Made by a program: the position numbers and the translations under genes. 64,000 nt of DNA from an uncultured Dehalococcoidia bacterium. Lineage in GTDB: Bacteria > Chloroflexota > Dehalococcoidia > Lucifugimonadales > GCA-2712585. The stretch covers positions 1,239,141 through 1,303,140 of the forward strand of contig OX638324.1 of assembly GCA_951812825.1 (NCBI GenBank), written 5' to 3'. Positions 18,049 through 24,546 of this stretch are shown one piece after another; within the stretch, counting starts at the first letter, position 1, and every line of letters begins with the position of its first letter. Under the pieces are notes generated by a model. The model was not told the DNA's origin. It did not search any database and saw only the letters and a program-made list of their open reading frames with translations.

Positions 18049-20355
18049 ATGAGTGTCGATATACTTGAGGGGCTGAACGAGGCCCAGCGAACGGCCGTCA
18101 CAATCACGGAAGGGCCGCTTCTTATCATCGCAGGACCGGGGTCCGGCAAGACGCGCGTAATCACCCACCGGATTGCTTACCTTGTCAGAGAAATGGACGT
18201 GCCACCCTGGAGAATTATGGCCGTCACGTTTACCAACAAGGCGGCAAATGAGATGCGGCAACGCTTGTTTGGCAAGAGTGACGAGGACCCTTCAGCACCG
18301 CTATTCGATCAGAGGAGCAGAGCTCAGGAACTCACGGTGCGCACCTTTCACGCCTTTTGCGCAACGGTGCTGCGACGGTTTGGGCACTACATTGGGCTTG
18401 ACCAGGGATTCAGCATCTTCGACACGGACGACCAGCTTACGCTTGTCAAGGCGGCGATGGAGGAGGAGGGGCTTGATCCCAAGTATTTCCCGCCAAGGGC
18501 CATACTCGGGGTCATATCCAGGGCCAAGAGCAACCTGAAGGACGCGCAGTCCCTCTTGCTCGGCGCCGACAACGCCTTCGAGGAAGGGGCGGGGCGAGTC
18601 TACGAACGCTACCAGGAACTGCTGCACCTGAACGGGGCGGTGGACTTCGACGACCTGCTGATGCGCACCGTCGAGCTCTTCCAGCGATCACCGGATACGC
18701 TGGAATACTACCAAGAACGTTTCCTGCACCTACTGGTGGACGAGTTTCAGGACACAAATGTGGCGCAGTACGAACTGTCCAAGCAGATTTCTGACTTACA
18801 CAAGAATATATGCGTTGTGGGCGACCCGGACCAGTCGATCTACTCGTGGCGCAGCGCAGACGTGCGGAACATTCTGGACTTCAAGAAGGACTATCCCGAC
18901 GCCAGGGTGGTGAATCTGGAGATCAACTACCGGTCGACGGGGAAAATCATCAAGGCGGCCAAGAGCGTCATCGCCTCAAACAGGCACCGCCCGGATAAGG
19001 ATATCCGAGCCTCGCGAGACGAGGGGAAGCCCCTGGTGGTGTACGAGACCTACGACACGGAAGAAGAGGCGTATTTCGCAGTGACGCAGATTTCGAACCT
19101 GCTTCGTAGGAAGGACTTCAATCTTTCCGACTGCGCCGTCATGTACCGAACTAACGCTCAGTCCCGCGCAATGGAAGAAGCATGCCTCCATCGCGGAATG
19201 CCCTACCACGTGGTGGGAGGCATCAAGTTCTACCATCGCGCGGAGGTGCGGGACATCATCGCCTACCTTCGTCTCATCAATAACCCGGGGGATGACGTCA
19301 GCCTGCAGCGCATCATAAATAAGCCCCGCCGGGGCATCGGAAACAAGTCACTGGACATGTTGCAGGACTTGGGCAGGGAGCACGAGTCGCCCATCTATCC
19401 CCTTTTGCGGCCCCTGGGAAAGCGGAAGAAGGGGGAGCCAGTGCCTTATGGGCTGTCGTCACGGCTGGTGAAGCCGCTTACCAGTTTCGTCAACCTTATG
19501 GAGGACCTGAGGGACGGAGCGGCTGAAATGGGCACGGTGAAGCTGCTGGACAAACTACTGCGGGGCATCAACTACCAGGAGTTTCTGCGGGCCGCGGGCG
19601 AGGACTGGGAGGACAAGTGGGAGAACGTGAGGGAGCTCCGCCGGGCGGCAGGGGAGTACGACGGGATGGAGGTTGGGGAAGGCCTGACGGCATTCCTAGA
19701 GCATCTGGCGCTGGTGGCGGAGGTGGACTCACTGGATGAAACGACGGACGCCATCACCCTGATAACCCTGCACCAGGCGAAGGGACTGGAGTTCCCGGTG
19801 GTGTTCATCATCGGACTGCAGGAAGGGCTTCTGCCTCATATGCGTTCCATGGACGACCCGGAGCAGCTGGAAGAGGAACGGCGGCTATTCTACGTGGGAA
19901 TCACCCGCTGCATGGACCGGCTGTTTCTGACGCGGGCCTTTCGTCAGCGGGGCTACAGAGGCGAGGGCGGCGTCGGGATTCCTTCACGATTCCTGCGAGA
20001 CGTGCCCAGCGAGCTGGTGGCGGAGGTGCCGCAGATAGTAGGCAGCAGATACGGCGGGCAGAGCTTCCCGGACTTTTCGTCAGGGGAAGCGAGCGTTGCG
20101 CGGAGGCAACGGGCCACGTCAGCCGTCAGGGTCGGCAGCGCCGGAGTCAACGGCGCAGGGACGGGGCCGGACAAAGATGGCGAAGCTCCGGCGTTTAAGG
20201 AAGGCGATCGAGTGCGGCACGGAGTCTTCGGCGAGGGGTTAGTGCTAAAGACGGCAGGCCAAGCGTCGGATAGGGAAGTGACGGTGGTGTTCAGGGAAGC
20301 CGGTGTGAAGAGGCTGTTGCTTTCCTTCGCTAACCTGAAGAAGGTGGAAAGCTAG
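18049..20355 (+). CDS. pcrA: ATP-dependent DNA helicase, UvrD/PcrA family (SF1A)
   Basis: The 768-residue protein has all SF1A motifs: Q-motif LNEAQRTAV, Walker A AGPGSGKTR, TFTNKAANEM (Ia), LLVDEFQDTN (II), VGDPDQSIYSWRSAD (III), INYRST (IV), ITLHQAKGLEFPVVFI (V) and EERRLFYVGITR (VI). After about residue 660 comes a low-complexity linker, then FKEGDRVRHGVFGEGLV, the small Tudor-like C-terminal domain typical of PcrA that contacts RNA polymerase. The enzyme acts in nucleotide-excision repair and replication restart. A weak TAGAAT box lies at 18033-18038. It converges with the PAC2 gene, leaving 15 bases. Confidence 0.95.
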   Translation: MSVDILEGLNEAQRTAVTITEGPLLIIAGPGSGKTRVITHRIAYLVREMDVPPWRIMAVTFTNKAANEMRQRLFGKSDEDPSAPLFDQRSRAQELTVRTFHAFCATVLRRFGHYIGLDQGFSIFDTDDQLTLVKAAMEEEGLDPKYFPPRAILGVISRAKSNLKDAQSLLLGADNAFEEGAGRVYERYQELLHLNGAVDFDDLLMRTVELFQRSPDTLEYYQERFLHLLVDEFQDTNVAQYELSKQISDLHKNICVVGDPDQSIYSWRSADVRNILDFKKDYPDARVVNLEINYRSTGKIIKAAKSVIASNRHRPDKDIRASRDEGKPLVVYETYDTEEEAYFAVTQISNLLRRKDFNLSDCAVMYRTNAQSRAMEEACLHRGMPYHVVGGIKFYHRAEVRDIIAYLRLINNPGDDVSLQRIINKPRRGIGNKSLDMLQDLGREHESPIYPLLRPLGKRKKGEPVPYGLSSRLVKPLTSFVNLMEDLRDGAAEMGTVKLLDKLLRGINYQEFLRAAGEDWEDKWENVRELRRAAGEYDGMEVGEGLTAFLEHLALVAEVDSLDETTDAITLITLHQAKGLEFPVVFIIGLQEGLLPHMRSMDDPEQLEEERRLFYVGITRCMDRLFLTRAFRQRGYRGEGGVGIPSRFLRDVPSELVAEVPQIVGSRYGGQSFPDFSSGEASVARRQRATSAVRVGSAGVNGAGTGPDKDGEAPAFKEGDRVRHGVFGEGLVLKTAGQASDREVTVVFREAGVKRLLLSFANLKKVES

Positions 20356-20370
20356 CCGAAACAAACGGCG

Positions 20371-21255
20371 TTAGCTTTCGAAACGCTCTCCCATCTCTTT
20401 GAGGAACTTTTCGACTTCAGGGGAGAGTTTCGTGCCCTCTTCGGCCTGTGCGGAGCGCTTGGCGGCACGGGAGTCGTAGTGAACCTCCAGCCGCTCGATG
20501 AGGGCCTTCAATCCCTTGTTGCGTAGGACTTCGTTGTTCACTTCCAGGTACTGACGCCTGCCCCGCTCGGGGTCTGCCAGGTCCTTGGAGAGGTTGTAAA
20601 CGGAGCAGAGCACTTCCAACAGGCGGGACGCGCCGGCGTAGTCCTCCTCCAGCTGAACGTACTGGGGTAGGTGTACCATGACACTGATGGCCTCGATGTT
20701 GCGCTCGCTGACGCCGTCGGCAACCAGGTTAACGATGGACGTGGGGCCTTGGTAGCTGCTGGGTCGGAGCTGCAGGGAACTGCCGTACTTAGTGGCCGCT
20801 TCGTCGCTGCTGGAACCGGTCACCAGCAGAGGCCGAGTGTGGGGCACGGCATCATACATGCCGCCGATGCGAACGTACTGCTTGACGTCCAGCCTGTCCA
20901 CGATGTCCAGGATGGCGTCGGTGTAATCTTCGCCGAAGGACTGGGGTTCCAAGAGATGGAAGAATAGAAGGTCCGGCGGCTCTTCGCGGATTGCGTAGTT
21001 GATGATGGTGTTGGGGATGTTGAGGACGCGACTGCCCTCCACGGTGCGCATGATGGGCCGGTAGCGGGTGAAGTCGTAGAAGTTGCCCGGACGGGTCAGG
21101 CGGCCCAACTCCTTCGCGCCGAAGAAGCGTTCCAGCTTTCTCAGAGCAATAGTCCCCACGCTGCCCACGTCGATCCACGGACGAAGCATGGCAATAACGT
21201 GGGGATCCTTCAACTCGGGAAGGGGGTCTGCTAGCGTAAAAGCTCCCTCTTTCAT
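20371..21255 (-). CDS. PAC2 family protein (proteasome-assembly-chaperone-like)
   Basis: The protein (294 residues from ATG 21255; an in-frame TTG at 21282 is nine codons upstream) contains the PAC2 core: HVIAMLRPWIDVGSVGTIALRKLE, PPDLLFFHLLEPQSFGEDYTDAILDIV, YVRIGGMYDAVPHTRPLLVTGSSSD and EAISVMVHLPQYVQLEEDYAGASRLLEVL. Archaeal and actinobacterial relatives have been linked to proteasome biology, but bacterial function is not established. The C-terminal tail (about 60 residues) is charged and helical. It follows the PPOX gene on the same strand with a short gap, and no proteasome gene is visible in this window. Confidence 0.85.
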   Translation of the reverse strand: MKEGAFTLADPLPELKDPHVIAMLRPWIDVGSVGTIALRKLERFFGAKELGRLTRPGNFYDFTRYRPIMRTVEGSRVLNIPNTIINYAIREEPPDLLFFHLLEPQSFGEDYTDAILDIVDRLDVKQYVRIGGMYDAVPHTRPLLVTGSSSDEAATKYGSSLQLRPSSYQGPTSIVNLVADGVSERNIEAISVMVHLPQYVQLEEDYAGASRLLEVLCSVYNLSKDLADPERGRRQYLEVNNEVLRNKGLKALIERLEVHYDSRAAKRSAQAEEGTKLSPEVEKFLKEMGERFES

Positions 21256-21292
21256 TCTGTAATCTTGCCAGAGGAACCCCAAATGCGCAAGT

Positions 21293-21721
21293 CTAACGGC
21301 CCGGATTTCCCCACGTCACTGCCTGAAATACCCGTATGCGGATAACCGGTCTATCTTCCAGAGTCATGGCGGAATACTGGGGGTATTTCTGGCGAAGGAG
21401 GGTCAGCGCCCAACGGTGCTCCGGGCCACGGTGAATGACCGAAGCGACGCCCCGGAGCAGGACGTACCATAGGCGGGTCCAGTCTTCGTCGTAGTGGTCA
21501 AGGAGGAGGGCGACCTGGGGGTTGGCAAGAATGTTGCGGACTCGGCGAAGATTGATAGTCTTGGCACGCTTGGGCTTCTGGTCTATGACGGAATACAGGG
21601 TTTCGCCGTCGAGGAAGTAGCAGAGCGGGATGAGGTGAGGCGCGCCGGTTGGGTCTGCGGTGGCGAGGCGGACGACGGGGCTTTCGGCAAGGACTCGGTG
21701 GATTTCGGGTGTGAGGGGCAA
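21293..21721 (-). CDS. PPOX-class oxidoreductase, Rv0121-like (probable F420-dependent)
   Basis: The 142-residue split-barrel protein contains VVRLATADPTGAPHLIPLCYFLDGETLYSVIDQKPKR and NPQVALLLDHYDEDWTRLWYVLLRG. The DHYD-DW-xLWxV segment is characteristic of the Rv0121 branch of PPOX proteins, predicted to use F420 rather than FMN. The cofE gene about 5.5 kb away supports cofactor availability. The substrate is unknown. It precedes PAC2 and follows the decayed vapBC pair. Confidence 0.82.
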   Translation of the reverse strand: MPLTPEIHRVLAESPVVRLATADPTGAPHLIPLCYFLDGETLYSVIDQKPKRAKTINLRRVRNILANPQVALLLDHYDEDWTRLWYVLLRGVASVIHRGPEHRWALTLLRQKYPQYSAMTLEDRPVIRIRVFQAVTWGNPGR

Positions 21722-21738
21722 GGGGGATTTAGGGCAGA

Positions 21739-22131
21739 CTAATCAGCCCAGGGGTTGATGACTTCGATGCCTGCGTCGAGAAAGTCTCCCACGTCTCTGG
21801 TGGCGCCGGATGCGCCGTAGACGTGTGGAATCGCCGCAATCATGCAGTCGGCAACTGTGACCGAAAGCCCCGCCGTTCGACGGGCGGCGGCACTGTCGAA
21901 AGGGAGAATGCGATTGTGAAAATGTCCCCGTAGTATCGTTTCTGCTACTTCGATCAACCCATCACGCCTCTTGCCAGCCGGAAGTATCTCAACGCCATAG
22001 CGCAATTCAGCCTCGGAAATGGTAGTGGTAAATATACTTACGAGTTCCTGGCGGGCAAACCAAATCCCAACTTTCGGATTGGGATTCGAACGCATCAACT
22101 CCGAGATAACGTTGGTGTCCACGATGATCAT
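21739..22131 (-). CDS. VapC/FitB-like PIN-domain toxin, probably with an internal deletion
   Basis: The 130-residue protein begins MIIVDTNVISELMRSNPNPK. It keeps the four PIN acidic positions: D5, E40/E42 (ISEAELRYG), D95 (VTVADCMIAA) and D113/D116 (ATRDVGDF). FitB-like toxins normally have a longer helix between the FDxxAA and the RAGxPIS(V/M)AD segments. Here FDSAAARRTAGLSVTVAD runs them together, about ten residues short. Toxin activity is therefore doubtful. The start overlaps the stop of the antitoxin frame by four bases (ATGA), the usual vapBC layout. Confidence 0.8.
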   Translation of the reverse strand: MIIVDTNVISELMRSNPNPKVGIWFARQELVSIFTTTISEAELRYGVEILPAGKRRDGLIEVAETILRGHFHNRILPFDSAAARRTAGLSVTVADCMIAAIPHVYGASGATRDVGDFLDAGIEVINPWAD

Positions 22132-22406
22132 TCTGGACGACGGTCAAGGCAATGAGGGCATTCTATAGGCATCCTCGGGAGGACATCCAACTCAATGCCG
22201 CCAAAGGGCTCAACCATTTTGCGAATTCCTTCCACATATTCCTTTCCCGTCATAGGCTTCTCCAGCGTCGGCAGTGGGTCTTCGGTGAGGGCCTCTTTCA
22301 GAATGTCGCAGGCCGCATCTGCCACGGAGCCTCCATTCTTTGCTGCCCGTGCTCACAGTCGAAGATAGACATCTTCTCCCAGCTTCAGATCGACAACTCT
22401 AACCAT
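22128..22406 (-). pseudogene. VapB/FitA-like antitoxin interrupted by an in-frame TGA
   Basis: From an ATG at 22406 with an excellent Shine-Dalgarno (GATGGAGGTG), the frame reads MVRVVDLKLGEDVYLRL, then TGA (22353-22355), then ARAAKNGGSVADAACDILKEAL to the stop at 22128. In FitA-like antitoxins the interrupted position is an Arg in LRxRAAxNG, so a single CGA-to-TGA change explains it. Downstream, GGAGG lies four bases before an in-frame GTG (22325), so a 65-residue C-terminal fragment could still be made. That fragment would have the toxin-binding part but no ribbon-helix-helix DNA-binding strand. Confidence 0.75.
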
Positions 22407-22487
22407 CGCTACACCTCCATCTGAAGGGTAATTCAATCATATCATCAACAAGCTGTCCCTCCAATCCAACAGCGCATCAACGCCTCT

Positions 22488-23141
22488 TCAGCCTTCGACC
22501 GTCGTTGTGGTCCTGAAGACCCAGAGCTGGTGAAGAACCTCCGGCTCACCCTTGGGGAGGGCTTGCACCGGCTCTCCCATAAACGCCAGCTCCCAACGAT
22601 CTGCGGATTCCAACCCTTCACGCGTTTCCCTGAATCCGGCACTCTCGTAGAGGTCGGGGCGCAGGGTGAAGATGACGTAGCCTCCGGGTTTCGTCACACG
22701 GACCATCTCGTCAAGGGAACGGGCGGGAGCGTGGCCCAAAGTCAACACGCCGATGCTGACCACGGCGTCGAAAGCATCATCTGGGAAGTCCAGCTTTTCT
22801 CCCAGTACCATGCGGTGCAATTCGCGGTAGACGCCCTTGGCACGGGCTTCTTCCAGCATCCCCGGGGACATGTCTATGGCGGTGAGGTCCCGGTATCCGG
22901 CCTCGGATAGAAACTTGCCTACGAGCCCCGTCCCAGCGCCTGCGTCCAATATGCGGGCTTCTGTCGATACGTGCTGCTTGCAAGCCTCAAGGGCCAAGGC
23001 GGGACCCAACCAGCCGAAGTCCTTGTCCAGGTCCTCGTCGTAGCTCTTGGCCCAGCTATTGTAACGCTCCTCCAACTCCTGGTTGTTGCGGGCACCGTAG
23101 ACCCACTGCACAAGGTTCTGATTCTCGTCCATATCAGGCAT
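22488..23141 (-). CDS. SAM-dependent methyltransferase (class I, DREV/Ubi-type)
   Basis: The 217-residue protein contains motif I ARILDAGAGTGLVGKFLSEAG, post-I LTAIDMSPGML, motif II-III FDAVVSIGVLTLGH and LDEMVRVTKPGGYVIFTLRPDLYE. The N-terminal helix YNSWAKSYDEDLDKDFGWLGP resembles Williams-Beuren-type (METTL27-like) methyltransferases. The substrate is not known. The ATG at 23141 follows AAAAGGAAGG; MDENQ three codons later is an alternative. It is divergent from the aminotransferase gene. Confidence 0.85.
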   Translation of the reverse strand: MPDMDENQNLVQWVYGARNNQELEERYNSWAKSYDEDLDKDFGWLGPALALEACKQHVSTEARILDAGAGTGLVGKFLSEAGYRDLTAIDMSPGMLEEARAKGVYRELHRMVLGEKLDFPDDAFDAVVSIGVLTLGHAPARSLDEMVRVTKPGGYVIFTLRPDLYESAGFRETREGLESADRWELAFMGEPVQALPKGEPEVLHQLWVFRTTTTVEG

Positions 23142-23244
23142 TCATTTCGGCCTTCCTTTTCATTGAAGTTTGCCATATCAATGTTAGGGAGTTCGACTGC
23201 CCACCGCAAATTTGGGTGGTGGCGAGGGGGTGTTGGGAGGCAAT

Positions 23245-23273
23245 TTGACCGACTCTGGCGGCGGTGCTAGCAT
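23245..23273 (+). promoter_or_regulatory. Promoter of the aminotransferase gene
   Basis: TTGACC (23245-23250) and TAGCAT (23268-23273) are separated by 17 bases. Transcription would begin near 23280, which rules out the longer upstream reading-frame start and supports the ATG at 23314. Confidence 0.55.
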
Positions 23274-23313
23274 GAATCGTCGAATCACGGCAGGAATATA
23301 TATTGGAGGGGAT

Positions 23314-24546
23314 ATGACCTCAGGCAAGACTTTTGATTACAGTAATCTCTTCGCAAAGGGGCTTCCATCGGCGATTGCTTCCGGAGATATGCCCCAGCCG
23401 AAGTACAACTTCATCCTGGGCCACACCAACGCGGAAACGATTCCGGTGGAGGGGTTGATTGAGGCCACCGCAGCGGCCATGCGGAAGGACGGGCCGGGCC
23501 TTTCCATCAACCTTCACAACGGCGGACTTCTCGGATATCTGCCCCTTAGGGAGTTCCTCGTCCACAAGCTTTCCAACTATCGAGGCGTAGACGTAACGGC
23601 GGACGAGATTCTGATCACCTCCGGATCGCAGACCGCCGCCATGCTAATCAACACGGCGCTGTTGGAGCCGGGGGATACGGTGGTAGCGGAGAATTGGTCC
23701 TATGTGGGGATGTTGGGGGACCTTCGGATGCGAGGGGTCAACGTCGTAGGGGTGCCGGTGGACGAAGACGGGATGCGGTTAGACGCCCTGGCGGACACGC
23801 TTTCGGAACTGGAAGATGAGGGCGTTCGGCCCAAGTACATTTACACTATCCCGACGGTGCAGAATCCGACGGGGGCCATCATGCCCATCGAACGACGGCA
23901 GGAGATGCTGCAGCTGAGCGAGGAGTACGGCGTGCCGATTCTGGAGGACGACTGCTACGCCGACCTGGTCTACGAAGGGGAGTCGGTCAACGCCATCCGC
24001 TCGATGGACGACTCCGACCGGGTGATCCACATGGGGTCCTTCTCCAAAAACCTGGCGCCGGGGATGAGACTGGGATACGTAGTGGCTTCCTGGCAGATTT
24101 TGGGACAGCTTCTACCTCTGAAGGGCGACATCGGTACATCCAACTTCGGGCAGATGGTGACGGCGGAGTTCTTCAACAACCACTATGAGGAGCACGTGGA
24201 GATCCTCCGGACTGCGCTTCGTAGGAAGCGGGACACGATGACAGCCGCCATCAGCGAGCACTTCGGCCCAATGGTGAAGCCGAACCATCCGCGGGGCGGC
24301 ATCTACCTGTGGGTGACGTTCCCCGAGGACGTGGACACGCGTAAGGCGCTGGCCGCAGCGCGGGAGATGGGCATCGGCTACAACCCCGGCTCCGACTGGG
24401 CGGTCTATCCCGCTGACGACGAACGAAACGGCAACAACTGCATCCGGTTCTGCTATGCGCTGCCCACGGAGGAGGAGATCTGGGAAGGGATTGAGCTGCT
24501 GGCGCGGGTTTTCCAGCGTGAGTTGGGCTTCCCGAAGGAGCGCTAG
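23314..24546 (+). CDS. PLP-dependent aminotransferase, class I/II (MocR/2-aminoadipate type)
   Basis: The 410-residue protein has fold type I features: ITSGSQTAAMLIN (cofactor phosphate loop), YTIPTVQNPTG (Asn that holds the PLP ring), VPILEDDCYADL (Asp that bonds the pyridine) and GSFSKNLAPGMRLGY with the Schiff-base Lys (K245). ISNPRGGIYLWV-like HPRGGIYLWVTFPE precedes the C-terminal Arg region NCIRFCYALP. It resembles LysN/2-aminoadipate aminotransferases; the donor and acceptor are not defined. The ATG at 23314 follows GGAGGGG. A hydratase gene starts four bases after its stop. Confidence 0.9.
   Translation: MTSGKTFDYSNLFAKGLPSAIASGDMPQPKYNFILGHTNAETIPVEGLIEATAAAMRKDGPGLSINLHNGGLLGYLPLREFLVHKLSNYRGVDVTADEILITSGSQTAAMLINTALLEPGDTVVAENWSYVGMLGDLRMRGVNVVGVPVDEDGMRLDALADTLSELEDEGVRPKYIYTIPTVQNPTGAIMPIERRQEMLQLSEEYGVPILEDDCYADLVYEGESVNAIRSMDDSDRVIHMGSFSKNLAPGMRLGYVVASWQILGQLLPLKGDIGTSNFGQMVTAEFFNNHYEEHVEILRTALRRKRDTMTAAISEHFGPMVKPNHPRGGIYLWVTFPEDVDTRKALAAAREMGIGYNPGSDWAVYPADDERNGNNCIRFCYALPTEEEIWEGIELLARVFQRELGFPKER

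What the first reader, a model, noticed from the sequence alone, without database searches (positions are those of the whole stretch)
21739..22406. vapBC module with a stop in the antitoxin and a shortened toxin
The antitoxin frame is perfect except for TGA at 22353-22355 in place of an expected Arg codon (CGA), after 17 codons with a strong ribosome site. A GGAGG-GTG restart just downstream could still make the toxin-binding C-terminus without the DNA-binding strand. The toxin lacks about ten residues between the FDSAAA and VAD segments. Either the toxin was disabled first, which made antitoxin loss harmless, or the system now runs on a truncated, non-autoregulating antitoxin.
Basis: partly seen in the sequence, partly recalled or inferred. 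Interest (0 to 1): 0.6.

Follow-up and report, generated by a model that had tools for sequence, protein, structure and literature searches.

The report
Broken FitAB-type toxin-antitoxin gene pair
A two-gene toxin-antitoxin unit of a well-known type carries an early stop in its antitoxin and a nine-residue hole in its toxin, so it is most likely a recently disabled relic, although a shortened antitoxin could in principle still be made.

Summary
On the minus strand an antitoxin frame (22406-22128) has an in-frame TGA at codon 18 (22355-22353), where 44 of 49 relatives have Arg and none has a stop. It overlaps a PIN toxin gene (22131-21739). The toxin is a FitB homologue (about 40% identical to Neisseria FitB). 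It lacks exactly 9 residues that FitB and all 64 relatives with the standard spacing keep. AlphaFold2 shows the affected helix cut from 16 to 7 residues, with confidence falling mainly there. All four acidic active-site residues remain.

The antitoxin frame is not "perfect except for TGA". Its DNA-binding strand and second helix are the most divergent of 45 family members, and the usual FitA-type operator is not recognisable. The hairpin between stop and restart, and the toxin-binding C-terminus with its conserved Arg, are normal. The toxin is as conserved as intact relatives. So both lesions look recent, added to a module that had already changed or lost its operator.

Most likely it is a recently inactivated FitAB/VapBC module. 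A restart at GTG 22325 (best internal ribosome site of 50 homologues) making a neutraliser without DNA-binding domain is the live rival. Same-genus genomes lack the module. Interest is low.

The parts
22128..22406 (-). Antitoxin frame (FitA-like ribbon-helix-helix), ATG start, own stop TGA at 22130-22128 overlapping the toxin ATG
   Evidence: PF22513 E 2e-4 with X at the stop, below gathering cut-off; family antitoxins of the class found with it, E down to 1e-10
22353..22355 (-). In-frame TGA, codon 18; Arg in 44 of 49 relatives, a stop in none
22414..22418 (-). GGAGG ribosome site of the antitoxin ATG (duplex energy -10.6 kcal/mol)
22330..22334 (-). Internal GGAGG, 4 nt before GTG 22325; strongest internal site at this position among 50 homologues; about 3% of internal in-frame starts in long ORFs of the window have one as strong
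22128..22325 (-). Possible restart product from GTG: 65 aa, helix 2 plus toxin-binding C-terminus with the conserved Arg (LPR)
   Evidence: translation not shown
21739..22131 (-). PIN-domain toxin, FitB-like, 130 aa, D5/E42/D95/D113 retained; no Shine-Dalgarno of its own
21882..21883 (-). Junction of the missing 9 residues (27 bp) between FDSAAA and RR
22432..22439 (-). TGATTGAA, the only near-match to the family operator half-site TGATWGCA; no paired half-site, no better than chance

Best explanation
This is a chromosomal, probably laterally acquired FitAB-type (VapBC superfamily) toxin-antitoxin module that has recently been inactivated. In FitAB the antitoxin binds its operator with a ribbon-helix-helix domain and blocks the PIN nuclease with its C-terminal tail. 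Here the DNA-binding part first diverged together with loss or change of the operator, while the frame and the toxin stayed under constraint. Then two lesions arose: a nonsense codon at antitoxin codon 18 and a 27-bp in-frame deletion that halves a toxin helix just before the catalytic D95. Because the toxin start overlaps the antitoxin end (ATGA) and has no ribosome site of its own, stopping translation at codon 18 should also cut toxin translation, so loss of the antitoxin need not be lethal. The most likely present state is a silent relic. Shown: the lesions, homology, predicted fold, conservation pattern, absence from sister genomes. Inferred: coupling, loss of activity, recency.
For: The stop and the deletion are unique among relatives. 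The AlphaFold2 model of the window toxin has pLDDT 67-70 over residues 81-100 against 86-96 elsewhere; the 58%-identical relative L060 has 92-99 throughout, and its helix 80-95 becomes 80-86 here. No Shine-Dalgarno at the toxin start (+0.7 kcal/mol) and an ATGA overlap, implying coupling. The toxin differs at only 3 of 43 conserved columns, two of them inside the deletion, and the antitoxin has no frameshift although neutral drift of this extent would be expected to give about 3-8, so the lesions look recent. The module is absent from both same-genus genomes and from the orthologous PNPOx-PAC2-UvrD neighbourhood of one of them. Decayed siblings occur in the family: L053, L054, L057, L058 (toxin), L040 (antitoxin). 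Degeneration of chromosomal TA modules is described in the literature (PMC7354431).
Against: All four acidic active-site residues are kept and the rest of the toxin fold is predicted with good confidence (VIA Z 20.0 to FitB, rmsd 1.5 over 129 residues), so the toxin might still be folded and active. A strong internal ribosome site sits at the first start codon after the stop. No reads were available to exclude a base error at the TGA. Relaxed selection could not be measured directly for want of a close homologue (best 59-60% identity).
Confidence: 0.62

Rival explanations
1. Working module with a split or truncated antitoxin: the first 17 codons act as a leader, ribosomes restart at GTG 22325 and make a 65-aa neutraliser without DNA-binding domain, and the same ribosomes translate the toxin by coupling at ATGA. 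The system is not autoregulated and the toxin is a weakened PIN nuclease.
For: Internal GGAGG (-9.3 kcal/mol) is stronger than at the same place in all 49 relatives (best -6.6); about 3% of internal starts are as strong. The C-terminal part (0.36 against 0.47, sd 0.11) with the active-site Arg is within the family range, while strand and helix 2 are outside it (0.26 against 0.59; 0.34 against 0.60). Operator not recognisable. Toxin otherwise conserved.
Against: The hairpin between stop and restart (residues 19-27), which would be untranslated, is normally conserved (0.59 against 0.71, sd 0.09), so the truncation is unlikely to be old. GGAGG is only 4 nt from the GTG, shorter than ideal. No precedent found in the papers searched.
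Confidence: 0.2
2. Toxin disabled first: the 27-bp deletion destroyed toxin activity, after which the antitoxin was free to pick up a stop. A special case of the relic reading (its probability is contained in that one) that fixes the order.
For: Deletion halves a core helix; antitoxin is more eroded than toxin.
Against: The antitoxin divergence is confined to the DNA-binding strand and helix 2 and free of frameshifts, which is not what general decay after toxin loss would look like; order not resolvable from one genome.
Confidence: 0.3
3. Base-calling or assembly error at the TGA in an otherwise open antitoxin frame.
For: A single base change would suffice; no reads were seen.
Against: No sign of general frame problems in the neighbouring genes; substitution errors are less common than indels in long-read assemblies (general knowledge; the sequencing method is not known here); the toxin deletion would remain unexplained.
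Confidence: 0.1
4. TGA is read through (recoding) and the full antitoxin is made.
For: Frame stays open after the stop.
Against: The antitoxin's own stop and that of the neighbouring methyltransferase are TGA; no Rfam element in 20000-24500.
Confidence: 0.03

Closest known systems
FitAB of Neisseria gonorrhoeae (PDB 2BSQ, 2H1C, 2H1O)
   Same: Toxin homologous over its whole length (phmmer 2.9e-20; VIA Z 20.0, 43% identity; Foldseek 3e-11), antitoxin of the same architecture (RHH plus C-terminal tail with Arg); relatives of the window antitoxin match FitA (1e-13 by profile)
   Different: Nine toxin helix residues missing; antitoxin interrupted at codon 18; DNA-binding strand diverged; window antitoxin alone does not match FitA by phmmer
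Intact FitAB-like modules of Chloroflexota, e.g. L060, L036, L044, L062
   Same: 57-59% toxin identity, same order, similar spacing
   Different: Full-length toxin (139-140 aa) and antitoxin (81-93 aa); L060, L036 and L044 have a paired TGATWGCA-type operator with 0-1 mismatch
Caulobacter VapBC1 (PDB 5K8J)
   Same: PIN toxin fold (Foldseek 7.6e-6, VIA Z 16.8)
   Different: Only 27-28% identical; intact
Degenerated chromosomal TA modules such as E. coli ccdAB (described in PMC7354431)
   Same: Chromosomal module losing function by mutation
   Different: Other toxin family; here both partners carry a lesion

Membership tests
FitB/VapC PIN toxin | PIN domain with conserved acidic residues | tested here: met
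   PF01850 E 9.7e-11 over the cut-off; D5, E42, D95 conserved, D113 present
FitB/VapC PIN toxin | Complete PIN fold including the helix before the catalytic Asp | tested here: not met
   9 residues missing; helix 80-95 cut to 80-86; spacing 15 against 24 in 64 relatives and FitB, 19-20 in six more distant PIN toxins
FitB/VapC PIN toxin | RNase activity and toxicity | not testable with these tools
   needs expression
FitA antitoxin | Ribbon-helix-helix domain in one open frame | tested here: not met
   TGA at codon 18; PF22513 only 21.8 bits against cut-off 27 with X at the stop
FitA antitoxin | C-terminal tail with Arg for the toxin active site (FitAB Arg68, PMC3384007) | tested here: met
   Arg kept at a column that is Arg in 42 of 49; equivalence to Arg68 is inferred from its position after GGVELE
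FitAB module | Antitoxin directly upstream of toxin, overlapping or close | tested here: met
   ATGA overlap
FitAB module | Inverted-repeat operator of the family upstream | tested here: not met
   best pair 3 mismatches, reached in 31% of shuffles; 28 of 50 relatives have 0-1 mismatch
FitAB module | Autoregulation by the complex | not testable with these tools
   needs DNA-binding assay

The most novel reading that the evidence does not exclude
A type II module that has shed its DNA-binding domain by a nonsense codon and now runs on a restarted, tail-only antitoxin translated in tandem with a toxin weakened by a helix deletion: two matched lesions, each making the other tolerable.
Probability: 0.12. 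Interest if true: 0.5.

Novelty: new member of a known kind. Interest (0 to 1): 0.2.

Why it matters
If it is a relic, it is one clean snapshot of how a toxin-antitoxin pair is dismantled, with translational coupling making antitoxin loss survivable. If the restart works, it would show that the neutralising tail alone can sustain a PIN toxin module without autoregulation, which is easy to test with a 65-residue peptide.

Tried and rejected
Antitoxin frameshift near the C-terminus: considered because the tail PIECPHCLD looks unlike relatives; alignment shows it is in frame throughout. Decay judged by low GC at third codon positions (0.52-0.59 against 0.72-0.78 in neighbours): dropped, because other PIN genes of this genome are also low, 0.53-0.67. 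Direct-repeat slippage as origin of the 27-bp gap: GCC-rich codons lie on both sides in relatives, but the ancestral sequence is unknown, so not claimed. Rescue by a paralogous antitoxin: two other FitA-like RHH genes exist in the genome, each beside another PIN gene; L112 is not similar beyond the domain, L113 was not read. Closer homologues on plasmids: 987 records, all under 60%. NCBIfam and PADLOC gave no named family over cut-off. Antitoxin of the window against PDB alone: nothing relevant. Papers on truncated or restarted antitoxins: none found. Rfam: nothing. Promoter scan uninformative.

Full report
What is there. The window lies in a 2.47-Mb single-contig genome; named genomes that carry related modules include Chloroflexota metagenome genomes, and one of these (L044) has the same toxin and antitoxin as a genome of the window's own class (L061). 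On the minus strand, between a methyltransferase gene (23141-22488) and a pyridoxamine-phosphate-oxidase-like gene (21721-21293), are an antitoxin frame (22406-22128) and a toxin gene (22131-21739) overlapping by ATGA. The antitoxin frame is 92 codons with TGA at codon 18 (22355-22353). The toxin is 130 aa and a PIN domain (PF01850, E 9.7e-11).

Family. The toxin is a FitB homologue: phmmer 2.9e-20 to 2H1C, Foldseek 3.2e-11 and VIA Z 20.0, rmsd 1.5 over 129 residues, 43% identity. Relatives' antitoxins match FitA at 1e-13 with a small profile. Read with X at the stop, the window antitoxin finds the family antitoxins of its class (down to 1e-10) and PF22513 FitA-like_RHH at 2e-4, under its cut-off.

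The stop. In 49 aligned relatives the column is Arg in 44 and otherwise Gln, Leu, His, Lys or Ala, never a stop.

The toxin gap. Between the FD motif and the catalytic Asp the window toxin has 15 residues; 64 relatives and FitB have 24, one has 25, six more distant PIN toxins have 19-20. AlphaFold2 with a 43-sequence alignment gives mean pLDDT 89, falling to 67-70 over residues 81-100, and helix 80-95 of the relative L060 (mean pLDDT 97) becomes 80-86. The acidic residues D5, E42, D95 and D113 are kept. In Shigella VapC the helices alpha4-alpha6 form an interface between VapC molecules (PMC3384007), so folding, assembly or both may suffer; activity is not shown either way.

Not only the stop is unusual. 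Over columns at least 80% conserved, the antitoxin departs at 11 of 24, the highest of 50; the toxin departs at 3 of 43, of which two are inside the gap. Mean identity to the family, relative to that of the paired toxin, is 0.74 for the DNA-binding domain against 1.30 (sd 0.12) in relatives, and 0.68 for the C-terminus against 0.94 (sd 0.16). By segment: residues 1-17, 0.26 against 0.59 (lowest of 45); residues 19-27, 0.59 against 0.71 (normal); residues 28-40, 0.34 against 0.60 (lowest); C-terminus, 0.36 against 0.47 (normal). Uniform decay would not spare 19-27, and an old truncation starting at GTG 22325 would leave 19-27 untranslated and free to drift. The stop is therefore probably younger than the divergence of the DNA-binding surfaces; with nine residues in that segment this is an indication, not proof. 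A simulation of neutral drift to the same extent needs about 66 substitutions and gives 1.2 stops on average, so one stop alone is unremarkable; but about 3-8 frameshifts would be expected for indel-to-substitution ratios of 0.05-0.15 and there are none. These rates are assumptions.

Operator. Most relatives carry TGATWGCA-type half-sites in inverted pairs upstream: 28 of 50 with 0-1 mismatch. The window's best pair has 3 mismatches, reached in 31% of shuffles. The four intact relatives with the lowest ratio for the DNA-binding domain (L034, L066, L078, L079) also lack it, which suggests that divergence of this domain goes with a changed operator rather than with decay. This was noticed after the fact and rests on four cases, two of which are close to each other.

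Translation. Duplex energy with the anti-Shine-Dalgarno is -10.6 for ATG 22406, -9.3 for GTG 22325 and +0.7 for the toxin ATG. Thus the toxin probably depends on coupling to the antitoxin; several relatives with the same overlap also have weak toxin sites. The internal site is the strongest of 50 homologues at that place; 35 of 1067 internal in-frame starts in long ORFs of the window are as strong. This is mild evidence for restart, not proof.

Context. Neither same-genus genome has a match to the toxin. In G002 the PNPOx-PAC2-UvrD order is kept with a HEAT-repeat-like gene in place of methyltransferase and module; in G001 the stretch before PAC2 is filled with repeats and lacks PNPOx. So the module is probably a local gain in this lineage.

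Verdict. A FitAB-type module, most likely inactivated recently by two lesions, with a tail-only antitoxin as a testable alternative. Degeneration of chromosomal modules is known (PMC7354431), and the family itself contains other broken members (L040, L053, L054, L057, L058). The interest is low.

Noticed in passing
L034, L066, L078, L079 upstream regions: Intact FitA-like antitoxins whose DNA-contacting strand differs (R/N changed to H/D/N) also lack the common TGATWGCA inverted repeat, suggesting operator switching within the family.
   Followed up: partly
L027 900-1500 (G001): Dense palindromic repeats (attcccgcgcaggcgggaa type) in front of the PAC2 gene in a same-genus genome, where the window has PNPOx and the toxin-antitoxin module.
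   Followed up: no
L040 antitoxin, L053/L054/L058 toxins: Other decayed FitAB-like modules: antitoxin lacking about 22 residues, toxins with internal stop, deletion or lost N-terminus.
   Followed up: partly
L073 and L076 antitoxins: Antitoxins with a duplicated toxin-binding tail (two GG(V/I)DLELP segments in tandem) in front of single PIN toxins.
   Followed up: no
genome G000, 15 places: Fifteen PIN-domain matches in a 2.47-Mb genome, and two other FitA-like RHH antitoxins, so the cell is rich in VapBC-type modules.
   Followed up: partly
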